Origin: Clostridiales bacterium
GTDB taxonomy: Bacteria; Bacillota; Clostridia; Christensenellales; Aristaeellaceae
Assembly: GCA_015056055.1 (NCBI GenBank)
Contig: SVHC01000003.1
Coordinates: 1-64,000 of the forward strand
DNA: 64,000 nt
Reading direction: 5' to 3'
Positions within the stretch are counted from its first letter, which is position 1. Each line of letters opens with the position of its first letter. The position numbers were made by a program, and so were the translations under genes. The notes below the pieces were generated by a model, which made no database searches, was not told the origin of the DNA, and saw only the letters and a program-made list of their open reading frames with translations. Shown piece after piece: positions 1,339-18,460 of the stretch.

Positions 1339-4245
1339 ATGCACGAAAATACCTTCCTTCTGGATTTCCGGATTGACTGGGGATACCAGTATCTGTATTC
1401 CCGCAGACATTATCATCCCGAGTACCTGTGGCACGGAAATCTCGCCTGCGAAGGCGGCGAAATCCTTGAATCCTACAAACTGGATTACCCCGTGGTATGG
1501 TACGGCCCGGGTCTGAGCGCCATTGAAACGCCGCTTGACAAACCCGAATGGGAAAGCCGCACCAAGCGCGGTATTGCCGGCGCACGTTTTGTGGCACGCG
1601 TTACGGAAGATGCTGTTTTCACGCTGACCACCGTTTCCGGCACGTTCACCTTCACCGCAAAGGATGTTCTGGAAAAAGGCCGCATTGAATTCCCCGTCGG
1701 CCCCAAATATCTGCAGTGCGGCGTGATCGTAACCCGCACGAATTTCTACTGGTTCCGCCCCGAACCGAAGGCTGACGCTGTTCTTTTCAACGAGGACCAG
1801 CTCGGCCTGCCCATGCATATCTGGGGAAGAACGCGCCTTGCCTATCTTGCGCCCGGCGAAAAGGTCGCCATGAAGCTTTCGGTTCCCGCTTCGCAGGCCG
1901 ATTACAGCGAGACTCTCATGCACCTGATCGCCATGGCTGCACCGGAATACAAAATCCCGGAAACGCCCGTGGACGAATACATCCCGATGGAGCTGTTCTG
2001 CGACGGCAAATCCGTCCTTAAATTCCGCCATTTTTACCGCAAGCACGATGCGGTCATCCAGATTCTGGACGACGTATGGCGCCGCTTCCAGATCGAACCC
2101 GGCGAGCATGTGATTGAGCTGCAGAACCATCACGAATGGGCCAATCTTGCCATCAGCCGCATAAGCTTCACCCAGAAAGAAAAGACCCACGCTCAGCTCA
2201 GCATTCCCGAATGGGCTCTGCGCGGCGAAAAAGTCACCGGCGCGGTATTTGCCGCCCGCGACGGACAGATCACCGTAACCACGCCCGCAGGCGACATCAC
2301 CGTGGACTGCGTAGTTGGCTGGAACAATTTCCCCGTACGCATCGAGGAACCCGGCGTTGCATCCTTCTCCACCGCAGCAGGCAGCGCGACCATCGAAATC
2401 CTCGACTTTGAAGAGGAAGCCATCCCTGTCAAGGTCGGCTACGACATGACGCAGATCGCACATGACGATACGGGAGAAATGGACTGGCTGCTTAATTACA
2501 CACACCGCACTCGCCTTGGCAACTATGTTTTGTTCCGCAGCTTCACCGGTCCGGTACCGGATGAACTCAACGAAAAATGGGGCCGCTATTGCGAAGAAAA
2601 CGGTCTGTACGTTTCTGCATCCGAATACTTCATGAGCGGCGCTCTGGTAAAGGGCGCTGGCAGCATGTTCCACGATTGCGGCAGGCACGAATATTCCGGC
2701 ATGGTATATGCCCATGATCCCAAGCCGCACATGACCTGCGATGATATGAAGAAGGCCACCGAAGCCTATCAGGAATATATGAAGCAGGAAATCGACCTTG
2801 TGCACACGGTTTCCCCGTCCGTTGCGTTCGGCGACGCCTCCGGCGCAATCCGCCATGCGTTCATCTCCGGCGCAGACTTCATCCGCGCGGAAACCATGGT
2901 CGGACACACGATGGTTCTGCTCAGCCAGGCACGCCCTGCGGCAGAGGCTCTGGGCAAGGGAACCTGGGGCGTTCATATCGCCATCCAGCATTCCAAGGAG
3001 CCCTATTACGAAACCCATCTGGGCGAATATTTCCTCAGCGTCATGCAGCCGTGGATGATGGGCGCAGAGACCATCTATGAGGAAGATTCCCTCTTCGGCA
3101 TGTGGAGCGAGGAGCGCATGTGCTGGGATGACGCGCTCACCAAGGGCAAGCGCGATATGACGCGCAATTTCTTCCGCTTCGCAAAGACGCATCCGCGCAA
3201 GGGTAAGAACGTGCGCAATATCGCCTTCCTCGAAGGCCGCTACGCTGCTCCCTTCAACGGCTTCATCTGCGACGTGGAACAGGATCCGCACTATTCCGTA
3301 TGGGGCGCATTCGGCTGCAACAATCCTGAATGGGGTCATGGTCAGCCCGAAAAGTGCCGCCAGCTGCTGGATGTGCTGATGCCCGGTGCAAGCACCCATC
3401 CGCTGCGCCAGAAGTTCGATAAGCGCCGCTTCTACTTCGCCGGTACGCCCTACGGCGATTTTGACTGCCTGCCCGTGGAAGCAAAGCAGGATTATGTAAA
3501 TCAGTACGATCTTCTCCTCAATCTCGGCTGGAATACCATGATCGAGGAAGACTATACCAAGCTCACGGACTATGTCAAAAACGGCGGCACGCTGCTCACC
3601 GGCATTCCGCAGTTCTCCACGCACACCCGCCGCGAATTTCTGAAGGATATGAAGGATCTTGCACTGTGGAAGGGCGGCGACCTTTCCGACCTGTGCGGTA
3701 TCCGCGTAAACGGCGCAGGCGTAAAATACTGCGGCCAGTGGAACGCCCTGAACAAGGAAACCGTTCCCGCACCCGTTTTGAGCGCACTGCCCAGCGACAG
3801 CCCGGATGAAGACGGCGATGCACTGCTTGCAGACGTTACCCTCGCAGGCGCCGAGATCGTCGCCTGGGACGCCGTCACCGGCAAGCCCATGCTCGTGCGC
3901 AACAAGGTCGGTAAGGGCTGGGTATATACCTTCACCCTGTGGGCATACCCCGGCCATGAGGATTTCCAGAATTTCTGCGCCGCATGGATTGCAGACCTTG
4001 CACAGAAGGCTCAGCCCGCCGTGCATGTGGACGATCCCTCGGGCGAAGTATTCTGGACCCGCTGGATTGATGGCGAGGATACCATCGTCATGCTCCTTAA
4101 CACCGACTGGACCAAGCGCGGCAACGAAAAGCCTGTGACCCTCTGCACGCCGGACGCAGCCTACCCCGTTTCCGTCCGCGAACGCGAGGCACAGATCATC
4201 CGCATCAAAAAAGACGGTCTCGAAACCGAAACCGTCACGCTGTAA
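1339..4245 (+). CDS. Large protein of unknown function, probably carbohydrate-active
   Basis: 968 aa with no signal peptide, so probably cytoplasmic. I cannot place it in a named family. The first 350 residues look beta-rich, like carbohydrate-binding or sandwich domains. The middle (about 380-680) has the helix/strand rhythm and many aromatic and acidic residues of a TIM-barrel glycosidase. Residues about 720-770 (YDLLLNLGWNTM, then YVKNGGTLLTG) resemble the class I glutamine-amidotransferase-like trimerisation domain that follows the barrel in several glycosidase families. The start is set by AAAGGAG 9 bases upstream. It ends in a strong terminator and is a single-gene unit beside a GH3 gene. 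A role in glycan breakdown is inference from fold and neighbours; catalytic residues could not be assigned. Confidence 0.7.
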   Translation: MHENTFLLDFRIDWGYQYLYSRRHYHPEYLWHGNLACEGGEILESYKLDYPVVWYGPGLSAIETPLDKPEWESRTKRGIAGARFVARVTEDAVFTLTTVSGTFTFTAKDVLEKGRIEFPVGPKYLQCGVIVTRTNFYWFRPEPKADAVLFNEDQLGLPMHIWGRTRLAYLAPGEKVAMKLSVPASQADYSETLMHLIAMAAPEYKIPETPVDEYIPMELFCDGKSVLKFRHFYRKHDAVIQILDDVWRRFQIEPGEHVIELQNHHEWANLAISRISFTQKEKTHAQLSIPEWALRGEKVTGAVFAARDGQITVTTPAGDITVDCVVGWNNFPVRIEEPGVASFSTAAGSATIEILDFEEEAIPVKVGYDMTQIAHDDTGEMDWLLNYTHRTRLGNYVLFRSFTGPVPDELNEKWGRYCEENGLYVSASEYFMSGALVKGAGSMFHDCGRHEYSGMVYAHDPKPHMTCDDMKKATEAYQEYMKQEIDLVHTVSPSVAFGDASGAIRHAFISGADFIRAETMVGHTMVLLSQARPAAEALGKGTWGVHIAIQHSKEPYYETHLGEYFLSVMQPWMMGAETIYEEDSLFGMWSEERMCWDDALTKGKRDMTRNFFRFAKTHPRKGKNVRNIAFLEGRYAAPFNGFICDVEQDPHYSVWGAFGCNNPEWGHGQPEKCRQLLDVLMPGASTHPLRQKFDKRRFYFAGTPYGDFDCLPVEAKQDYVNQYDLLLNLGWNTMIEEDYTKLTDYVKNGGTLLTGIPQFSTHTRREFLKDMKDLALWKGGDLSDLCGIRVNGAGVKYCGQWNALNKETVPAPVLSALPSDSPDEDGDALLADVTLAGAEIVAWDAVTGKPMLVRNKVGKGWVYTFTLWAYPGHEDFQNFCAAWIADLAQKAQPAVHVDDPSGEVFWTRWIDGEDTIVMLLNTDWTKRGNEKPVTLCTPDAAYPVSVREREAQIIRIKKDGLETETVTL

Positions 4246-10788: not shown

Positions 10789-11001
10789 TTATACGGTAAT
10801 GGCTTCTGCCAGGTAGTTATCAATATTATAGCGACCGTCCTTGATGGAAACCACGCATCCGCTTCTGGAACGGGAAATCACGGTAATCGGTTCGCCGCTG
10901 TAGCAGCCCAGCGAAAACAGAAACGAATTGAGTTCTTCATCGTCCGTATTGATTTCGAGGATAATATATTCTTTTCCGATTTCTGCATTTTTCAGATTCA
11001 T
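10789..11001 (-). CDS. feoA: Ferrous iron transport protein FeoA
   Basis: 70 aa, the normal size of a lone SH3-like FeoA domain. It starts with the typical amphipathic lead (MNLKNAEIGKEY) and contains SLGCYSGEPITVISR, matching the family's LGhxpGs.I.V pattern. It is thought to assist FeoB at the cytoplasmic side. The start at 11001 is set by AGGTGA 7 bases upstream. A gap of 129 bases separates it from feoB. Its own near-consensus promoter and a palindrome near +1 lie just upstream. Confidence 0.92.
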   Translation of the reverse strand: MNLKNAEIGKEYIILEINTDDEELNSFLFSLGCYSGEPITVISRSRSGCVVSIKDGRYNIDNYLAEAITV

Positions 11002-11035
11002 AAATATCACCTGATCCATTCTGCCTTTTACGGAA

Positions 11036-11049
11036 TTAGCCTTGCCTAA
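11036..11049. promoter_or_regulatory. Candidate iron-responsive operator of feo
   Basis: TTAGCCTTGCCTAA, an inverted repeat (TTAG...CTAA) lying just downstream of the predicted start of transcription. It resembles half-sites of DtxR/IdeR-type iron repressors (TTAGG...CCTAA). The assignment is inferred from position and partial match. Confidence 0.45.
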
Positions 11050-11059
11050 CTTCGCTTTA

Positions 11060-11088
11060 ATTATATATTCGCCTGCATCGGTTGTCAA
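11060..11088 (-). promoter_or_regulatory. Consensus promoter of the feo operon
   Basis: Leftward TTGACA, exactly 17 bases, TATAAT: a perfect match to the housekeeping consensus. This makes feo independent of the RNA array upstream. Confidence 0.85.
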
Positions 11089-11140
11089 CACTGTATTCTG
11101 TGAAATTTTGGTTTTACTCTCTCAAGCTGTTTAACTGCAT

Positions 11141-11191
11141 AAAAAAATGACCCTTGACTGACTTTCTTTCGATTTCATCAGTCAAGGGTCA
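11141..11191 (-). terminator. Terminator of RNA module 1
   Basis: Perfect 14-bp stem (TGACCCTTGACTGA at 11148-11161 with its complement at 11178-11191) and a seven-base U tract leftward. The first stem bases are the stop codon of micro-ORF 1. Confidence 0.9.
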
Positions 11192-11218
11192 GTGTGCTAT
11201 CTTGTTATCTAACATCAT
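11189..11218 (-). CDS. Micro-ORF 1, MMLDNKIAH
   Basis: Nine codons at the 3' end of RNA 1. AAAGAGAGG lies 8 bases before the first of two ATG codons. The first six residues (MMLDNK) are identical in all three modules, although codons differ silently. Stop TGA is the start of the terminator stem. The peptide is hydrophilic with no membrane segment, so not a typical type I toxin. Confidence 0.55.
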   Translation of the reverse strand: MMLDNKIAH

Positions 11219-11879
11219 TTGTGTACCTCTCTTTCTATTGATTCAAACGCTTTCGGCTTACGGGATGATCTTATCCGATGTTCATGATCTCCGGAATCTT
11301 TCGCGATATATTTTTTTGCGACTGTTTTGTTCCGTAATGTATGATCTTTTGATCTGGTGTATTGATCCTGAACTATCTTTTGATCCGTTGATCATTTGAA
11401 TTCCGAATTCACGAACTATAATCTTTCGATTCTTTGAAGTCCCGACTTTCCGAATTCCTGATCTGCCCTTTGGGGATTTTAATCTTCGATTTTACCGGGC
11501 TGTTCTGCTCGGCTCTTTCGATTCTTATAAATACCGTTCATTGGCTATTGCTGCGAAATCCATTGAATTCAGCTTCTTTTACTCAGCGCCTTCTTCATTT
11601 CTTCCTGCAATGCTTCCGATTCGGTCTTTATAAATCCCTGTCACCAATCCTCATTGAATTTGGGGATTCCATCTGATAGATTTTGTGACTTTGCCAAGGT
11701 ATAATTGCGGATTGGCGATCTTTTGAACCGATTGAAAATCTGATCTTCGTTTATTATCCTTCAATTGTGGTTTCAGGACTTCTGTGAAGGTCTTATTCCC
11801 AGTCATGCTCTTTTTGATCGTTCCCAAGCCAGCGTTTGTGTCTCAGGGTTTTTTATTACTTGTTCTTCCCTGTGACAAT

Positions 11880-11908
11880 AATATACCACAATCAAGCATC
11901 TTTTGCAA
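11880..11908 (-). promoter_or_regulatory. Leftward promoter of RNA module 1
   Basis: TTGCAA, 17 bases, TATATT. The surrounding CCAATTGCAA and the bases around the -10 are conserved in the other two modules. Confidence 0.75.
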
Positions 11909-11971
11909 TTGGCATTTTTAACAATTTTATTTTGCGTTAATTATCGTAATTCGAGATTCTTTTCCAACCTC

Positions 11972-12035
11972 TTGATTTTCATCTTTGTTTGTGCTATTCT
12001 TAATATGTTGGGCGTGAAAAAGCGCTCATTTTTTT
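11972..12035 (+). ncRNA. Rightward promoter-terminator pair, module 1
   Basis: Promoter TTGATT (11972-11977), 17 bases, TATTCT (11995-12000). The hairpin GGGCGT/GCGCTC (12010-12027) and seven T's follow at once, so the transcript would be only about 30 nt and consist almost wholly of the hairpin. Confidence 0.5.
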
Positions 12036-12053
12036 GTATCCTTACTCCCGCAT

Positions 12054-12104
12054 AAAAAAATAACCCTTGACCGTCTTATCTCCCATCAACGGTCAAGGGT
12101 TATT
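12054..12104 (-). terminator. Terminator of RNA module 2
   Basis: Perfect 16-bp stem (12059-12074 with 12089-12104) built on AACCCTTGACCGT, with A and T runs on both sides so it could act in both directions. The stop codon of micro-ORF 2 lies inside the stem. Confidence 0.9.
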
Positions 12105-12132
12105 CATGGGACTTCTTATTATCTAGCATCAT
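12100..12132 (-). CDS. Micro-ORF 2, MMLDNKKSHE
   Basis: Ten codons. AAAGAGAGGTAACCA leads directly into ATGATG. Leu is CTA here and TTA in modules 1 and 3: a silent change. Stop TAA is in the terminator stem. Confidence 0.55.
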   Translation of the reverse strand: MMLDNKKSHE

Positions 12133-12283
12133 TGGTTACCTCTCTTTCTGCGAATCGGCGGCAGGTCTTTGTTGACTCCATTTGTTCCTCTTGAGTGCTT
12201 ACATTGCAGATCATTCAAGGCTGCTCCCCGCCAAAGATTCCGCCTTTTGTTATCAGGGTTTTGTTTTCCTTCCCTGTGTCTAT

Positions 12284-12312
12284 AATATATCACAATTAAC
12301 GCTACTTTGCAA
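12284..12312 (-). promoter_or_regulatory. Leftward promoter of RNA module 2
   Basis: TTGCAA, 17 bases, TATATT with TG one base before the -10 (extended -10). Confidence 0.75.
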
Positions 12313-12376
12313 TTGGCAATTTATACGCAAATGATAACCTCACATTGTTCATTTTACTGATTCTTTTCGTTTCCCA

Positions 12377-12436
12377 TTGACTTCTTCGCACATTTGCGGT
12401 ATACTGAATCTGTTGGGCGCATAAAAGCGCTTTTTT
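12377..12436 (+). ncRNA. Rightward promoter-terminator pair, module 2
   Basis: TTGACT (12377-12382), 17 bases, TATACT (12400-12405), then GCGC-ATAAAA-GCGC (12417-12430) and six T's. The predicted product is about 30 nt. Confidence 0.55.
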
Positions 12437-12453
12437 CTTTCCTTTTTGCAGAC

Positions 12454-12513
12454 GCATAAAAAATAACCCTTGACCAATCTATCTTTCGATCTCATCGGTC
12501 AAGGGTTATTTTT
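12454..12513 (-). terminator. Terminator of RNA module 3
   Basis: 17-bp perfect stem (12459-12475 with 12497-12513) based on AACCCTTGACC, followed leftward by an A-rich stretch. Confidence 0.85.
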
Positions 12514-12538
12514 CTGTCATTTTATTATCTAACATCAT
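12506..12538 (-). CDS. Micro-ORF 3, MMLDNKMTEK
   Basis: Ten codons with AAGAGAGG 8 bases before the ATG pair. Lys6 is AAA here and AAG in the other copies: a silent change. The tail after MMLDNK differs in every module. Confidence 0.55.
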   Translation of the reverse strand: MMLDNKMTEK

Positions 12539-12707
12539 TGGTTACCTCTCTTTTCTGCAGCTTACGACGAGCATTTTCTTCTCATTCGGACCACTTACAA
12601 TAACTGTGACATTTTCAGCGTTTTCTCTGCTGCTCTTTGTCCCTTTTGAAGTCCCGTCGTTTTCGGCTTTCACCGTTTCACAGGTTCTTTTCCTTCCCTG
12701 TGTCTAT

Positions 12708-12736
12708 AATATATCACAATCAGTCACTCTTTGCAA
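12708..12736 (-). promoter_or_regulatory. Leftward promoter of RNA module 3
   Basis: TTGCAA, 17 bases, TATATT with an extended -10 TG, nearly identical to module 2. Confidence 0.75.
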
Positions 12737-12800
12737 TTGGTATATTTGCTAAACATGATAACTGAACATTGTTCAAAAATCGAAATCTTTATCATTCCAC

Positions 12801-12866
12801 TTGCCACGCACAAATATCTCTGCTATAATTGGTATATTGGGCGCTCAAAAAAAGTGTCCTTTTTTC
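12801..12866 (+). ncRNA. Rightward promoter-terminator pair, module 3
   Basis: TTGCCA (12801-12806), 17 bases, TATAAT (12824-12829), then the hairpin GGGCGCT/AGTGTCC (12839-12859) and seven T's. The predicted product is about 30 nt. Confidence 0.55.
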
Positions 12867-12879
12867 TTTTCCATTCGCC

Positions 12880-12908
12880 TTGCCATAATCGTGCATTTAT
12901 TGTATAAT
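12880..12908 (+). promoter_or_regulatory. Promoter of the symporter operon
   Basis: TTGCCA, 17 bases, TATAAT, about 60 bases before the symporter ATG. Confidence 0.7.
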
Positions 12909-12969
12909 AAGTCCCGCAACGTCGCCTGCAGAATGAGCTGCATGCTGCGACAAGGAAGGATGGTAAGAA

Positions 12970-14505
12970 ATGTTTATCAAGGTTCTGCTTCTCGTGGTCT
13001 TTTTCTCCTCAATGGTAGGAATCGGCCTGTACTGCCGCCGCCGCGTGAAAAACGTGGGCGACTTCGTACTGGGCGGAAGAAGTGTCGGCCCATGGCTCAC
13101 TGCCTTCTCGTACGGCACAAGTTATTTCTCCGCAGTAGTATTTATCGGTTATGCCGGTCAGTTCGGCTGGGCATACGGTGTAAGCGCAACATGGATCGGC
13201 ATCGGCAATGCCGTCATCGGCAGTCTGCTCGCCTGGATGATTCTCGGCCGCAGAACACGAATTATGACGAAAGCTCTTTCGGCATCCACCATGCCGGAAT
13301 TCTTCGAAAAACGCTATGGCGGCAGGCTTATAAAAATCGTCGCCAGCATGATCATTTTCACTTTCCTCGTTCCCTATACCGCATCGGTATACAAAGGTCT
13401 TTCTTCCCTGTTTGCTCAGGCATTCAACATTGACTACATTTACTGCATGATCGGCATGGCCGCACTGACAGGTATTTATGTGATCCTCGGCGGTTATATG
13501 GCTACATCAATCAGCGATTTCATTCAGGGAATTATTATGCTGGTAGGCATTGTATGCGTAATCGGCGCAGTGCTGAACGGTCAGGGCGGTTTCATGGAAG
13601 CAATCAACCGTCTTTCCCAGTTTGAAAGCGAAGCGGCAGTGACCGCAGGCCAGCAGGGTGTATATTCGTCCTTCTTCGGCCCCGACCCGATCAATCTGCT
13701 GGGTGTTGTTATACTGACCTCTCTTGGCACCTGGGGTCTTCCTCAGATGGTCCACAAGTTCTACAGCATTAAGGACGAGCGTTCCATCAAGACCGGCACC
13801 GTTATCTCCACCGCATTTGCCCTGATCGTCGCAGGCGGTTCCTACTTCAACGGCGCATTTGGCCGCCTGTATGTGGATACGCCCGCCTCCGTAGGCGGCT
13901 TTGACGGCATCATCCCGGCAATGCTCGGCGGTCAGCTCAATGATCTGCTTATGGGCATCGTTATCGTGCTGGTGCTTTCCGCATCCATGAGCACGCTTGC
14001 TTCTCTGGTTCTCACTTCCAGTTCGACGCTTACGCTCGACCTGATTCGCGACCAGTTCGTGCCCAACATGAAAAACACACACCAGATGCTCATAATCCGC
14101 ATTCTGTGTGCCGCCTTTATCGTGCTGAGTGTAGTAATCGCCGCGGTTCCGAATTCGTTGATCACCTCCCTAATGTCCCTTTCCTGGGGCGCACTGGGCG
14201 GCGCATTCCTGGCTCCGTTCATGTACGGCCTGTTCTGGAAAGGCGCGACCCGCGCCGCAGCGTGGGTATCCTTCGCAATCGGCGTAGGCTTCACCAGCCT
14301 GAACATGGTATTCGAATGGATTTCTCCCACCAACGCAGGCGCAATCGTAATGATTGCCTCTCTGATTATCTTCCCGCTGGTCAGCCTCGTAACGAAGAAG
14401 CAGCCCAGAGAACAGCTCGACAAGATTTTCTCCTGCTACGACGAAGAGGTCACCGTGCGCAAACGCTATGCCCTGAAGGAAGAAGAGGAAACTATCGTAC
14501 ACTAA
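12970..14505 (+). CDS. Sodium:solute symporter (SSS family)
   Basis: 511 aa with about 13 hydrophobic segments. Membrane transporter coupling solute uptake to Na+. The N-terminal segment is followed by GDFVLGGRSVGPWLTAFSYGTSYFSAVVFIG (residues about 31-60), typical of the family, and GTWGLPQMVHKFYS lies near residue 255. AAGGAAGGA upstream sets the ATG. It leads an operon with an SGNH hydrolase and an iron alcohol dehydrogenase, next to a GH51 gene. The solute is probably a sugar or organic acid from glycan breakdown; that is inference. Confidence 0.93.
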   Translation: MFIKVLLLVVFFSSMVGIGLYCRRRVKNVGDFVLGGRSVGPWLTAFSYGTSYFSAVVFIGYAGQFGWAYGVSATWIGIGNAVIGSLLAWMILGRRTRIMTKALSASTMPEFFEKRYGGRLIKIVASMIIFTFLVPYTASVYKGLSSLFAQAFNIDYIYCMIGMAALTGIYVILGGYMATSISDFIQGIIMLVGIVCVIGAVLNGQGGFMEAINRLSQFESEAAVTAGQQGVYSSFFGPDPINLLGVVILTSLGTWGLPQMVHKFYSIKDERSIKTGTVISTAFALIVAGGSYFNGAFGRLYVDTPASVGGFDGIIPAMLGGQLNDLLMGIVIVLVLSASMSTLASLVLTSSSTLTLDLIRDQFVPNMKNTHQMLIIRILCAAFIVLSVVIAAVPNSLITSLMSLSWGALGGAFLAPFMYGLFWKGATRAAAWVSFAIGVGFTSLNMVFEWISPTNAGAIVMIASLIIFPLVSLVTKKQPREQLDKIFSCYDEEVTVRKRYALKEEEETIVH

Positions 14506-18028: not shown

Positions 18029-18460
18029 ACTGCCCTGCGCTTCGCTTGCGCAGTATTCCGCAGCTGCGCACTACGTGTGCTCGCTGCTTCAGCCTTCGGC
18101 CTTCGATAACGCACTGCCCTGCGCTTCGCTTGCGCAGTATTCCGCAGCTGCGCACTACGTGTGCTCGCTGCTTCAGCCTTCGGCCTTCGATAACACACTG
18201 CCCTGCGCTTCGCTTGCGCAGTATTCCGCAGCTGCGCACTACGTGTGCTCGCTGCTTCAGCCTTCGGCCTTCGATAACGTACTGCCCTGCGCTTCGCTTG
18301 CGCAGTATTCCGCAGCTGCGCACTACGTGTGCTCGCTGCTTCAGCCTTCGGCCTTCGATAACGCACTGCCCTGCGCTTCGCTTGCGCAGTATTCCGCAGC
18401 TGCGCACTACGTGTGCTCGCTGCTTCAGCCTTCGGCCTTCGATAACGTACTGCCCTGCGG
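18029..18460. repeat. 84-base tandem repeat array, five full copies plus a partial sixth
   Basis: Copies start at 18029, 18113, 18197, 18281, 18365 and 18449 (partial), nearly identical apart from one base before ACTGCCCT. Each unit is a string of small palindromes: CTGCGC-TTCGCTT-GCGCAG, GCAGCTGC, GCAC-TACG-TGTGC, AGCC-TTCG-GCCT. There are no spacers, so this is not CRISPR. 84 is a multiple of three, which leaves several frames open without any gene. It fills the gap between abfA and nth. Confidence 0.95.

What the first reader, a model, noticed from the sequence alone, without database searches (positions are those of the whole stretch)
11141..12866. Three tandem copies of an undescribed divergent RNA module
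The 1.8 kb between feoA and the symporter has no conventional gene but is highly organised. Each unit holds a leftward promoter TTGCAA-N17-TATATT, an RNA of about 225-730 nt opening with a small hairpin, a conserved AAAGAGAGG site and micro-ORF, and a perfect terminator. Facing away, 60-70 bases upstream, is a rightward promoter running into a hairpin at once. All parts recur three times in the same order while the RNA bodies differ greatly in length and sequence. The paired change CAGGG/CCCTG to CACAGG/CCTGTG supports a selected 5' stem. I know of no named family with this layout.
Basis: partly seen in the sequence, partly recalled or inferred. Interest (0 to 1): 0.85.

Follow-up and report, generated by a model that had tools for sequence, protein, structure and literature searches.

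The report
Dispersed RNA genes with micro-ORFs
The stretch holds three copies of a previously unnamed kind of bacterial RNA gene, found scattered through gut and rumen Clostridia, whose predicted RNAs carry unusually strong ribosome-binding sites followed by tiny reading frames, so they look built to catch and hold ribosomes.

Summary
The three units are real and the same genome holds five more. A covariance model of the 3' part finds relatives in 48 of 117 contigs of one pattern scan and in 17 of 390 other genomes drawn from the class. No Rfam family, phage or plasmid matched the units. Conserved parts: a divergent promoter pair; on one side a minimal RNA that starts near UGUUG and enters a hairpin at once; on the other an RNA that opens with a strong Shine-Dalgarno site plus a 2-3 codon ORF or, as in window units 1 and 2, a 5' hairpin; a variable body of 29-626 nt; and a second strong Shine-Dalgarno site with an ORF of about nine codons whose stop codon lies in the covarying terminator stem (77 of 80). 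Best reading: stable, ribosome-engaged RNAs resembling the microcin C mccA message and toxic minigenes. Their use to the cell is unproven; a translation brake or a stabilised regulatory RNA lead. No transcript was seen. No known family tested fits.

The parts
11139..11873 (-). unit 1 long RNA (predicted start about 11873, end at the terminator)
   Evidence: promoter 11908-11880; fold z -7.8 against 20 shuffles
11880..11908 (-). unit 1 leftward promoter TTGCAA-N17-TATATT
11844..11872 (-). unit 1 5' hairpin (CAGGG/CCCTG)
11189..11218 (-). unit 1 micro-ORF MMLDNKIAH* with SD AAAGAGAGGT just upstream
   Evidence: strong SD
11139..11197 (-). unit 1 terminator; stop codon lies in the stem
11972..12037 (+). 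unit 1 divergent minimal RNA: promoter TTGATT-N17-TATTCT (about 11972-12000), then TGTTGGG hairpin and T-run
   Evidence: hairpin 12009-12028; alignment; promoter read by eye
12053..12277 (-). unit 2 long RNA
   Evidence: promoter 12312-12284; fold z -2.9
12284..12312 (-). unit 2 leftward promoter
12254..12276 (-). unit 2 5' hairpin (CAGGG/CCCTG)
12100..12132 (-). unit 2 micro-ORF MMLDNKKSHE*
12053..12104 (-). unit 2 terminator overlapping the stop codon
12377..12438 (+). unit 2 divergent minimal RNA: promoter TTGACT-N17-TATACT then hairpin 12415-12432 and T-run
12457..12701 (-). unit 3 long RNA
   Evidence: promoter 12736-12708; fold z -6.4
12708..12736 (-). unit 3 leftward promoter
12679..12702 (-). 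unit 3 5' hairpin (CACAGG/CCTGTG)
12506..12538 (-). unit 3 micro-ORF MMLDNKMTEK*
12457..12513 (-). unit 3 terminator overlapping the stop codon
12801..12865 (+). unit 3 divergent minimal RNA: promoter TTGCCA-N17-TATAAT then hairpin 12839-12859 and T-run

Best explanation
Each unit is a small RNA gene whose long transcript is built to stay loaded with ribosomes. Shown from sequence: a divergent promoter pair; a 5' end that is either a very strong Shine-Dalgarno site with a 2-3 codon ORF or, in many other members, a 5' hairpin; a variable body that can be nearly absent; and a second very strong Shine-Dalgarno site with an ORF of about nine codons that ends inside the terminator stem. Inferred: ribosomes bind these sites and translate the tiny frames over and over without leaving. 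This shields the RNA from 5' exonuclease at one end while the terminator shields the other, so a stable, ribosome-engaged RNA builds up when the promoter fires. Inferred and less certain: the selected effect is the engagement itself, a brake that ties up initiating ribosomes or peptidyl-tRNA. In the window copies the 5' site is a hairpin and the 3' ribosome site remains. The opposite promoter fires almost straight into a hairpin and would make an RNA of roughly 25-60 nt; it may tune the main promoter (by supercoiling or occupancy) rather than act as antisense.
For: Strong-SD micro-ORFs upstream of the 3' element, so not counting the one that defined the set: 0.57 per RNA over 74 order-level members against 0.075 +/- 0.03 in 100 shuffles, maximum 0.16. 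Counting the 3' ORF as well and adding 17 class-level members: 1.43 against 0.16 (there the 3' ORF, and for the class level the 5' site, are partly present by selection). SD pairing energies average -12.8 (5' ORF, 56) and -12.7 (3' ORF, 78) kcal/mol, against -7.1 for the best in-frame start of 35 large ORFs of the window (one reaches -16.1) and -3.3 at random sites (1st percentile -11.2; the 16S tail was recalled). A 5' ORF of at most 4 codons with an SD in 39 of 74 order-level members (shuffles 6.2, max 11) and 17 of 18 class-level members, of which 15 were found by searching for such a site, 2 with patterns written after reading the sequences, and L217 has none. Stop codon at the stem base in 77 of 80: TGA 39, TAA 29, TAG 9, TGG 0 (chance of no TGG about 0.001 if members were independent). 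The stem covaries: 15 of 17 pairs show double changes. The body is 60 nt or less in 12 of 74. Some members have extra minigenes: L229 three MFR* frames plus the 3' ORF, L086 and L230 two. Precedents: ORFs of 2-8 codons can be translated reiteratively without ribosome dissociation; in vitro the 7-codon mccA gave about 71 rounds, an 11-codon form 30 and a 15-codon form 6 (PMC6495379, passages). A 5' SD blocks RNase J1 (PMC4113751, passages). Ribosomes stalled on minigenes stabilise their RNA, and strong-SD minigenes can be toxic (PMC8708949, passages).
Against: No transcript, ribosome footprint or half-life has been seen. Twelve of 18 class-level members carry a long conserved body with a paired core, which argues that the RNA does, or once did, something beyond holding ribosomes. 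35 of 74 order-level members, window units 1 and 2 among them, show no 5' minigene by the test used; unit 3 passes only by a borderline GTG frame, VKR*. The conserved MLDxK start of the 3' ORF suggests that the peptide or the codons matter too. The 3' ORF, at about nine codons, is a little longer than the 2-8 codons cited for reiterative translation. The minigene studied in PMC8708949 was itself not toxic. The divergent minimal RNA is not explained by this reading.
Confidence: 0.42

Rival explanations
1. The ribosome-binding ends and terminator are only a stabilising chassis; the variable body is the working part, a trans-acting regulatory or structured RNA, with copies diversified for different targets.
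For: Twelve of 18 class-level members share a conserved core: motif ACACGACGGTG (in most of them), closing stem GCCTTTTG/CAAAAGGC with double changes in 5 of 9 pairs, hairpin TTCTCCTTAGAGAA. 18 of 57 order-level bodies of 110 nt or more have a 4-bp hairpin with an RCHHWN loop, 16 of them 69-88 nt before the 3' element (shuffles 2.0, max 5 of 30). Bodies fold slightly better than flanking DNA (mean z -1.70 of 68 against -1.05 of 65, one-sided p 0.0003).
Against: 12 of 74 members have a body of 60 nt or less. The class-level core model finds nothing at E below 0.1 in any order-level locus searched or in the window. The unit 1 body has no match elsewhere in its genome longer than about 36 bases or better than E 0.2. 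The hairpin motif was defined after seeing the data.
Confidence: 0.28
2. A type I toxin-antitoxin-like or abortive-infection unit: the long RNA is a toxic minigene message and the divergent minimal RNA its antitoxin.
For: Divergent arrangement with a small hairpin RNA. Strong-SD minigenes can be toxic through peptidyl-tRNA accumulation (PMC8708949, passages). Tandem, patchy, multi-copy distribution.
Against: The minimal RNA does not pair better with its own long RNA than with those of other members (65 units, Wilcoxon p 0.86; 5 of 65 had z below -2), and the two do not overlap. The 3' peptide is hydrophilic (reading). No phage or plasmid copies were found. The minigene of PMC8708949 was not toxic.
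Confidence: 0.1
3. A non-autonomous mobile or interspersed repeat kept by its own spread, with no host function.
For: Up to 8 copies per genome, tandem arrays, patchy within genera. The nearest relative of a copy is often in the same genome (19 of 37 against 1.5 expected, max 8). Flanking genes rarely recur (137 flanking ORFs in 107 clusters).
Against: No terminal repeats or transposase were noticed, though no systematic search for them or for target duplications was made. Copies keep shared neighbours in two genomes of one genus (L138/L140, L144/L145). Promoters, SDs, stop codon and paired terminator are maintained while sequence drifts. No clean empty site was obtained.
Confidence: 0.1
4. 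A gene for a nine-residue peptide with a function of its own (signal or modified peptide).
For: MLD[TNI]K...K* of near constant length, ATG nine codons before the stop in 74 of 80. Synonymous or related forms in far members (L201 CTG GAC ATT; MMEPKDLGK, MKEPKEFGK). The 7-codon mccA is a known precedent (PMC6495379).
Against: No modifying enzyme or exporter recurs among the flanking ORFs as far as clustering shows; no profile search was run on them. The last four residues vary. Nucleotides TTAGAT are kept more strictly than the residues require; that is partly built into the search pattern.
Confidence: 0.07
5. A leader or attenuator of the neighbouring gene.
For: In several members the minimal RNA points at a likely gene start, an SD and ATG that follow closely (L101, L116, L138; read from the listing). 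Terminators close to promoters are typical of attenuators.
Against: Neighbours are mostly unrelated; the largest recurrent groups outside tandem or orthologous copies are three members each (L041/L065/L113 and L032/L104/L180). In the window, feoA and the symporter have promoters of their own (12880-12908), and the minimal RNAs of units 1 and 2 face the next unit.
Confidence: 0.03

Closest known systems
mccA message of the microcin C operon
   Same: ORF of 7 codons directly before an intrinsic terminator; reiterative translation; ribosome binding linked to termination (PMC6495379, passages)
   Different: the peptide rarely ends in Asn (3 of 80), no operon of biosynthetic genes was seen to recur, and there is a divergent RNA and often a second 5' minigene
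STAB-SD 5' stabiliser of cry3A mRNA
   Same: strong SD close to the 5' end, able to block RNase J1 (PMC4113751, passages)
   Different: here it is followed by a start codon and a 2-3 codon ORF, in an RNA with no large gene; window units 1 and 2 lack it
Toxic or regulatory minigenes (lambda bar, recalled; axe-txe mg2, PMC8708949)
   Same: strong SD with 2-3 codon ORFs; ribosome engagement stabilises the RNA
   Different: mg2 acts in cis in the leader of a toxin gene; here minigenes sit in dedicated multi-copy RNA genes together with a nine-codon ORF fused to the terminator
Divergent type I toxin-antitoxin pairs such as tisB/istR (recalled)
   Same: divergent small RNA plus a small-ORF message
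   Different: no overlap or cognate complementarity; the peptide is shorter and hydrophilic
3161 unnamed candidate structured RNAs of human microbiomes (PMC8040213, passages)
   Same: a search of that kind could have met pieces of this family
   Different: the supplementary tables could not be read here, so overlap is unknown

Membership tests
Any Rfam 15 family | covariance model match at the gathering score | tested here: not met
   No match on the modules in the window or in 18 order-level loci (the three hits there are a TPP and a purine riboswitch and a tRNA in the flanks). At E up to 1 in 11000-13000 only miRNA and snoRNA models far below their gathering scores. In 15 of the 18 class-level loci at E up to 0.1: tRNAs, a Gut-1 RNA beside the L219 unit, and below-threshold matches, of which mir-4477 lies on the terminators of L216 and L222
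Microcin C-type (mccA) | ORF of about 7 codons abutting an intrinsic terminator | tested here: met
   about 9 codons, stop inside the stem
Microcin C-type (mccA) | C-terminal Asn (recalled) and an adjacent mccB adenylyltransferase | tested here: not met
   C-terminal residue K 51, E 8, N 3 of 80; flanking ORFs rarely recur; no mccB profile search was run
Type I toxin-antitoxin | antisense complementarity between the two RNAs | tested here: not met
   cognate not better than non-cognate, p 0.86, 65 units
Type I toxin-antitoxin | toxic hydrophobic peptide of about 20-60 residues (recalled) | tested here: not met
   peptide mostly 9-10 residues, charged
cis-regulatory leader/attenuator | constant type of gene downstream on the same strand | tested here: not met
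   137 flanking ORFs in 107 clusters; the largest clusters, of four, are tandem or near-identical loci
Toxic minigene | strong SD followed by a 2-3 codon ORF | tested here: met
   for the family: 39 of 74 order-level (about 6 by chance) and 17 of 18 class-level members; not for window units 1 and 2, and for unit 3 only a borderline GTG frame
Toxic minigene | growth inhibition or peptidyl-tRNA accumulation on expression | not testable with these tools
   needs expression
Transposable element / MITE | terminal repeats, target duplication, empty sites | tested here: inconclusive
   no such ends noticed in the repeat listing of the window copies, no systematic search; no clean empty site
Phage- or plasmid-borne element | copies in phage, plasmid or viral contigs | tested here: not met
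   0 true members in 7 pattern hits; no BLAST match for unit 3

The most novel reading that the evidence does not exclude
A new class of bacterial RNA gene whose product works by holding ribosomes: dedicated, multi-copy, often tandem transcripts made of strong Shine-Dalgarno minigenes plus a nine-codon ORF locked to the terminator, used by gut and rumen Clostridia as an inducible translation brake, with a conserved RNA core in some lineages that others have shed.
Probability: 0.2. Interest if true: 0.9.

Novelty: categorically new. Interest (0 to 1): 0.75.

Why it matters
It is a conserved, dispersed genetic unit with no Rfam name in poorly studied gut and rumen bacteria. It puts three separately known tricks (5' ribosome-binding stabiliser, minigene, mccA-like ORF-terminator fusion) into one stand-alone RNA gene. 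If ribosome engagement is its job, it would be a natural ribosome sink. If not, it is a new RNA family with a ready stabilising chassis. Both are directly testable with RNA-seq and ribosome profiling.

Tried and rejected
Known RNA families: Rfam on the window and on 33 related loci gave nothing on the modules above gathering score; mir-2363, SNORD72 and mir-4477 hits are far below their gathering scores and sit on terminator stems. Antisense pairing of the two RNAs: none beyond chance. Mobile element: no plasmid, phage or viral copies found. The empty-site test failed for lack of usable data: the contig of the same-genus genome G001 ends just upstream of the symporter; three genomes of the genus of G322 have other genes where its unit lies, and the fourth had only weak partial matches. 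Neighbour association: little. Body homology: the class-level core model R2 does not reach order-level members or the window, and of the six class-level loci outside its seed it finds L226 strongly, L225 and L217 weakly, and L228, L229 and L233 not at E below 1, so I do not claim that the window bodies hold that core. Search of the unit 1 body in its own genome: nothing. Literature: searches for descriptive terms and for peptide or DNA words found nothing on this layout; of the four papers listed I saw passages of one (PMC8040213) and only the listing of the others, among them PMC6429828.

Limits of the counts. The relatives were found with a pattern that fixes ATGTTAGATA, so conservation of those letters is partly by construction; the stop codon, terminator, 5' region and minigene were not in the pattern. 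The genome draws over 40 genomes used stricter filters that lose weak matches. Alignment A5 was fitted to the model's structure, which leans pair counts towards it, and related members are not independent. The tiny-RNA listing covers 66 of the 74 units with a 5' region hit and was anchored on the CAACA word, so its conservation is better judged. The class-level set of 18 was in large part picked up by having a 5' site when its 5' ends were assigned. Flank controls contain other terminators.
Full report
What is in the window. On the minus strand each has a promoter TTGCAA-N17-TATATT with a TG before the -10, a short 5' hairpin, a body, a Shine-Dalgarno (SD) site AAAGAGAGGT, a micro-ORF (MMLDNKIAH*, MMLDNKKSHE*, MMLDNKMTEK*) and a terminator. 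About 65 bases from the leftward -35, a rightward promoter runs into a hairpin and T-run. feoA has its own promoter TTGACA-N17-TATAAT and a TTAGGCAAGGCTAA palindrome (DtxR-like, a recalled motif) downstream of unit 1, and the symporter has TTGCCA-N17-TATAAT at 12880-12908. The units are therefore not needed as promoters for these genes.

More copies in the same genome. BLAST with unit 3 found further 3' elements on contigs C5, C63 and C49. The covariance model counts eight in all. Two of the five extra copies are of the window type (C5, and C63 near 36.4 kb). Three are a second type with a 5' ORF ATG-TAC-xxG-TAA (MYR*, MYR*, MYT*) soon after the predicted start site and a longer terminator.

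The family. Model R1 (eight own copies, 107 positions, 17 pairs) finds members in 48 of the 117 contigs of a single pattern scan, all 117 being tested. By record title these are Oscillospiraceae, Ruminococcaceae and other Clostridia bins, many from rumen and gut. By genome, own genome excluded: 5 of 150 in the family, 3 of 395 in the order, 1 of the 10 further genomes in the family of G299, 17 of 390 in the class and 0 of 397 in the phylum draw. The 20 carrier genomes reached through loci hold 1-6 matches each; some weak matches there are antisense or divergent. The family is thus patchy, and in these samples no genome outside the class had it.

What is conserved. In alignment A5 (81 hits, 80 distinct) 97.7% of cells of the 17-pair terminator stem are paired, and 15 of 17 pairs show changes on both sides, against 8.4 in shuffles. 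Three of those stem positions are the stop codon: TGA 39, TAA 29, TAG 9, other 3, and TGG never. The hypergeometric chance of no TGG, taking members as independent, is 0.001. ATG stands nine codons before the stop in 74 of 80. Far members keep the frame with other residues: MMEPKDLGK*, MKEPKEFGK*, MEPQDVMG*, MIDPIYF*, and a form with synonymous codons, MMLDIKNEG* (translated by eye).

The 5' side. A profile of the region from the divergent hairpin to the start site, made from 29 sequences, is found upstream of 74 of 78 members with enough flank, 44 of 48 of them not in the seed, with none below E 0.001 in reversed sequence. Three further members had too little upstream sequence to test. The distance to the 3' element is 29-626 nt, median 160. 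The divergent RNA begins TGTTG in 50 of 66 listed; 62 of 66 fold at -7 kcal/mol or better within 45 nt, and 34 of 66 pass a strict test of a perfect stem followed by a T-rich run. The hairpin sequence differs from member to member.

Ribosome sites. A 5' ORF of at most four codons with an SD is found in 39 of 74 order-level members (shuffles 6.2 +/- 2.2) and in 17 of 18 class-level members, L217 being the exception (the class-level ones were mostly located by such a site). Many of the other 35 order-level members, window units 1 and 2 included, can form a small hairpin there (listing, judged by eye). SD pairing is very strong at both ends. Upstream of the 3' element, order-level members hold 0.57 strong-SD micro-ORFs each against 0.075 in shuffles. 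L229 has three minigenes in a row; L086 and L230 have two.

The body. Twelve of 18 class-level members share a long body; most of them have the motif ACACGACGGTG..ATATAGAT, and they share a closing stem with double changes in 5 of 9 pairs and a hairpin TTCTCCTTAGAGAA. A model of that core (R2) built from these twelve finds class-level L226 at E 6e-16, L225 and L217 weakly, and no order-level member at E below 0.1. A related hairpin may persist in 18 of 57 longer order-level bodies (motif chosen after looking). Bodies fold only modestly better than flanking DNA. The body is 60 nt or less in 12 of 74, and I do not assign it a function.

How it most likely works. Shown: the parts, their conservation and their strength as sequence signals. 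Inferred: transcription, ribosome binding and effect. Short ORFs can be translated again and again without dissociation: in vitro the 7-codon mccA ORF gave about 71 rounds, falling to 30 at 11 codons, and the authors cite 2-8 codon ORFs as capable of this (PMC6495379, passages). An SD near the 5' end of cry3A mRNA blocks RNase J1 (PMC4113751, passages). Strong-SD minigenes stay engaged by ribosomes, which stabilises their RNA, and can be toxic, though the one studied there was not (PMC8708949, passages). An RNA with one such site at its 5' end and another locked to its terminator should be stable and ribosome-bound. The exchange of minigene for 5' hairpin in the window type fits a shared stabilising role at that position. 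Whether the cell uses this as a brake or as a chassis for a working RNA body cannot be decided here.

Evolution. The nearest relative of a copy, judged on the 3' element, is in its own genome for 19 of 37 copies in multi-copy genomes (expected 1.5, maximum 8 in 2000 shuffles), so units seem to multiply within genomes, while L138/L140 and L144/L145 keep shared neighbours in two genomes of one genus. No copies turned up in phage, plasmid or viral collections.

Novelty. No Rfam family matched, and five literature searches found no paper that describes this layout; only open-access papers were searchable. Searches were aimed at the precedents used above. Microbiome-wide surveys list thousands of unnamed candidates (PMC8040213, passages) whose tables could not be read, so pieces may have been listed without a name. 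I rate it categorically new because the whole layout matches no family tested here; each single trick has a precedent.

Noticed in passing
window 18029-18459: An 84-bp tandem repeat, 5.1 copies at 98% match, just after the end of a 492-codon plus-strand ORF.
   Followed up: no
window 11060-11088 and 11036-11049, minus strand: feoA has a near-consensus promoter followed by TTAGGCAAGGCTAA, which looks like a DtxR/IdeR-type metal-repressor box (motif recalled).
   Followed up: no
L219, L220, L222, L230: Four of 15 class-level loci scanned have a tRNA gene within the fetched flank, and L219 also has a Gut-1 RNA (RF01706, 72.6 bits) about 200 bases downstream of its unit.
   Followed up: no
members: Units between two co-directional genes point against them more often than with them (25 against 8; tandem copies counted separately, so the bias is overstated).
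   Followed up: partly
L218-L233, about 100 bases upstream of the long-RNA promoter: Similar DNA (TTCTGC..ACAAAAA....TTTTGTCAATTGAAAA) between the two promoters in many of these genomes suggests a shared regulator or upstream element (read by eye).
   Followed up: no
L229 (unit near 1501-1740, minus strand): Three consecutive copies of an SD plus MFR* minigene about 45 nt apart, then the 3' ORF: nearly a pure minigene array.
   Followed up: partly
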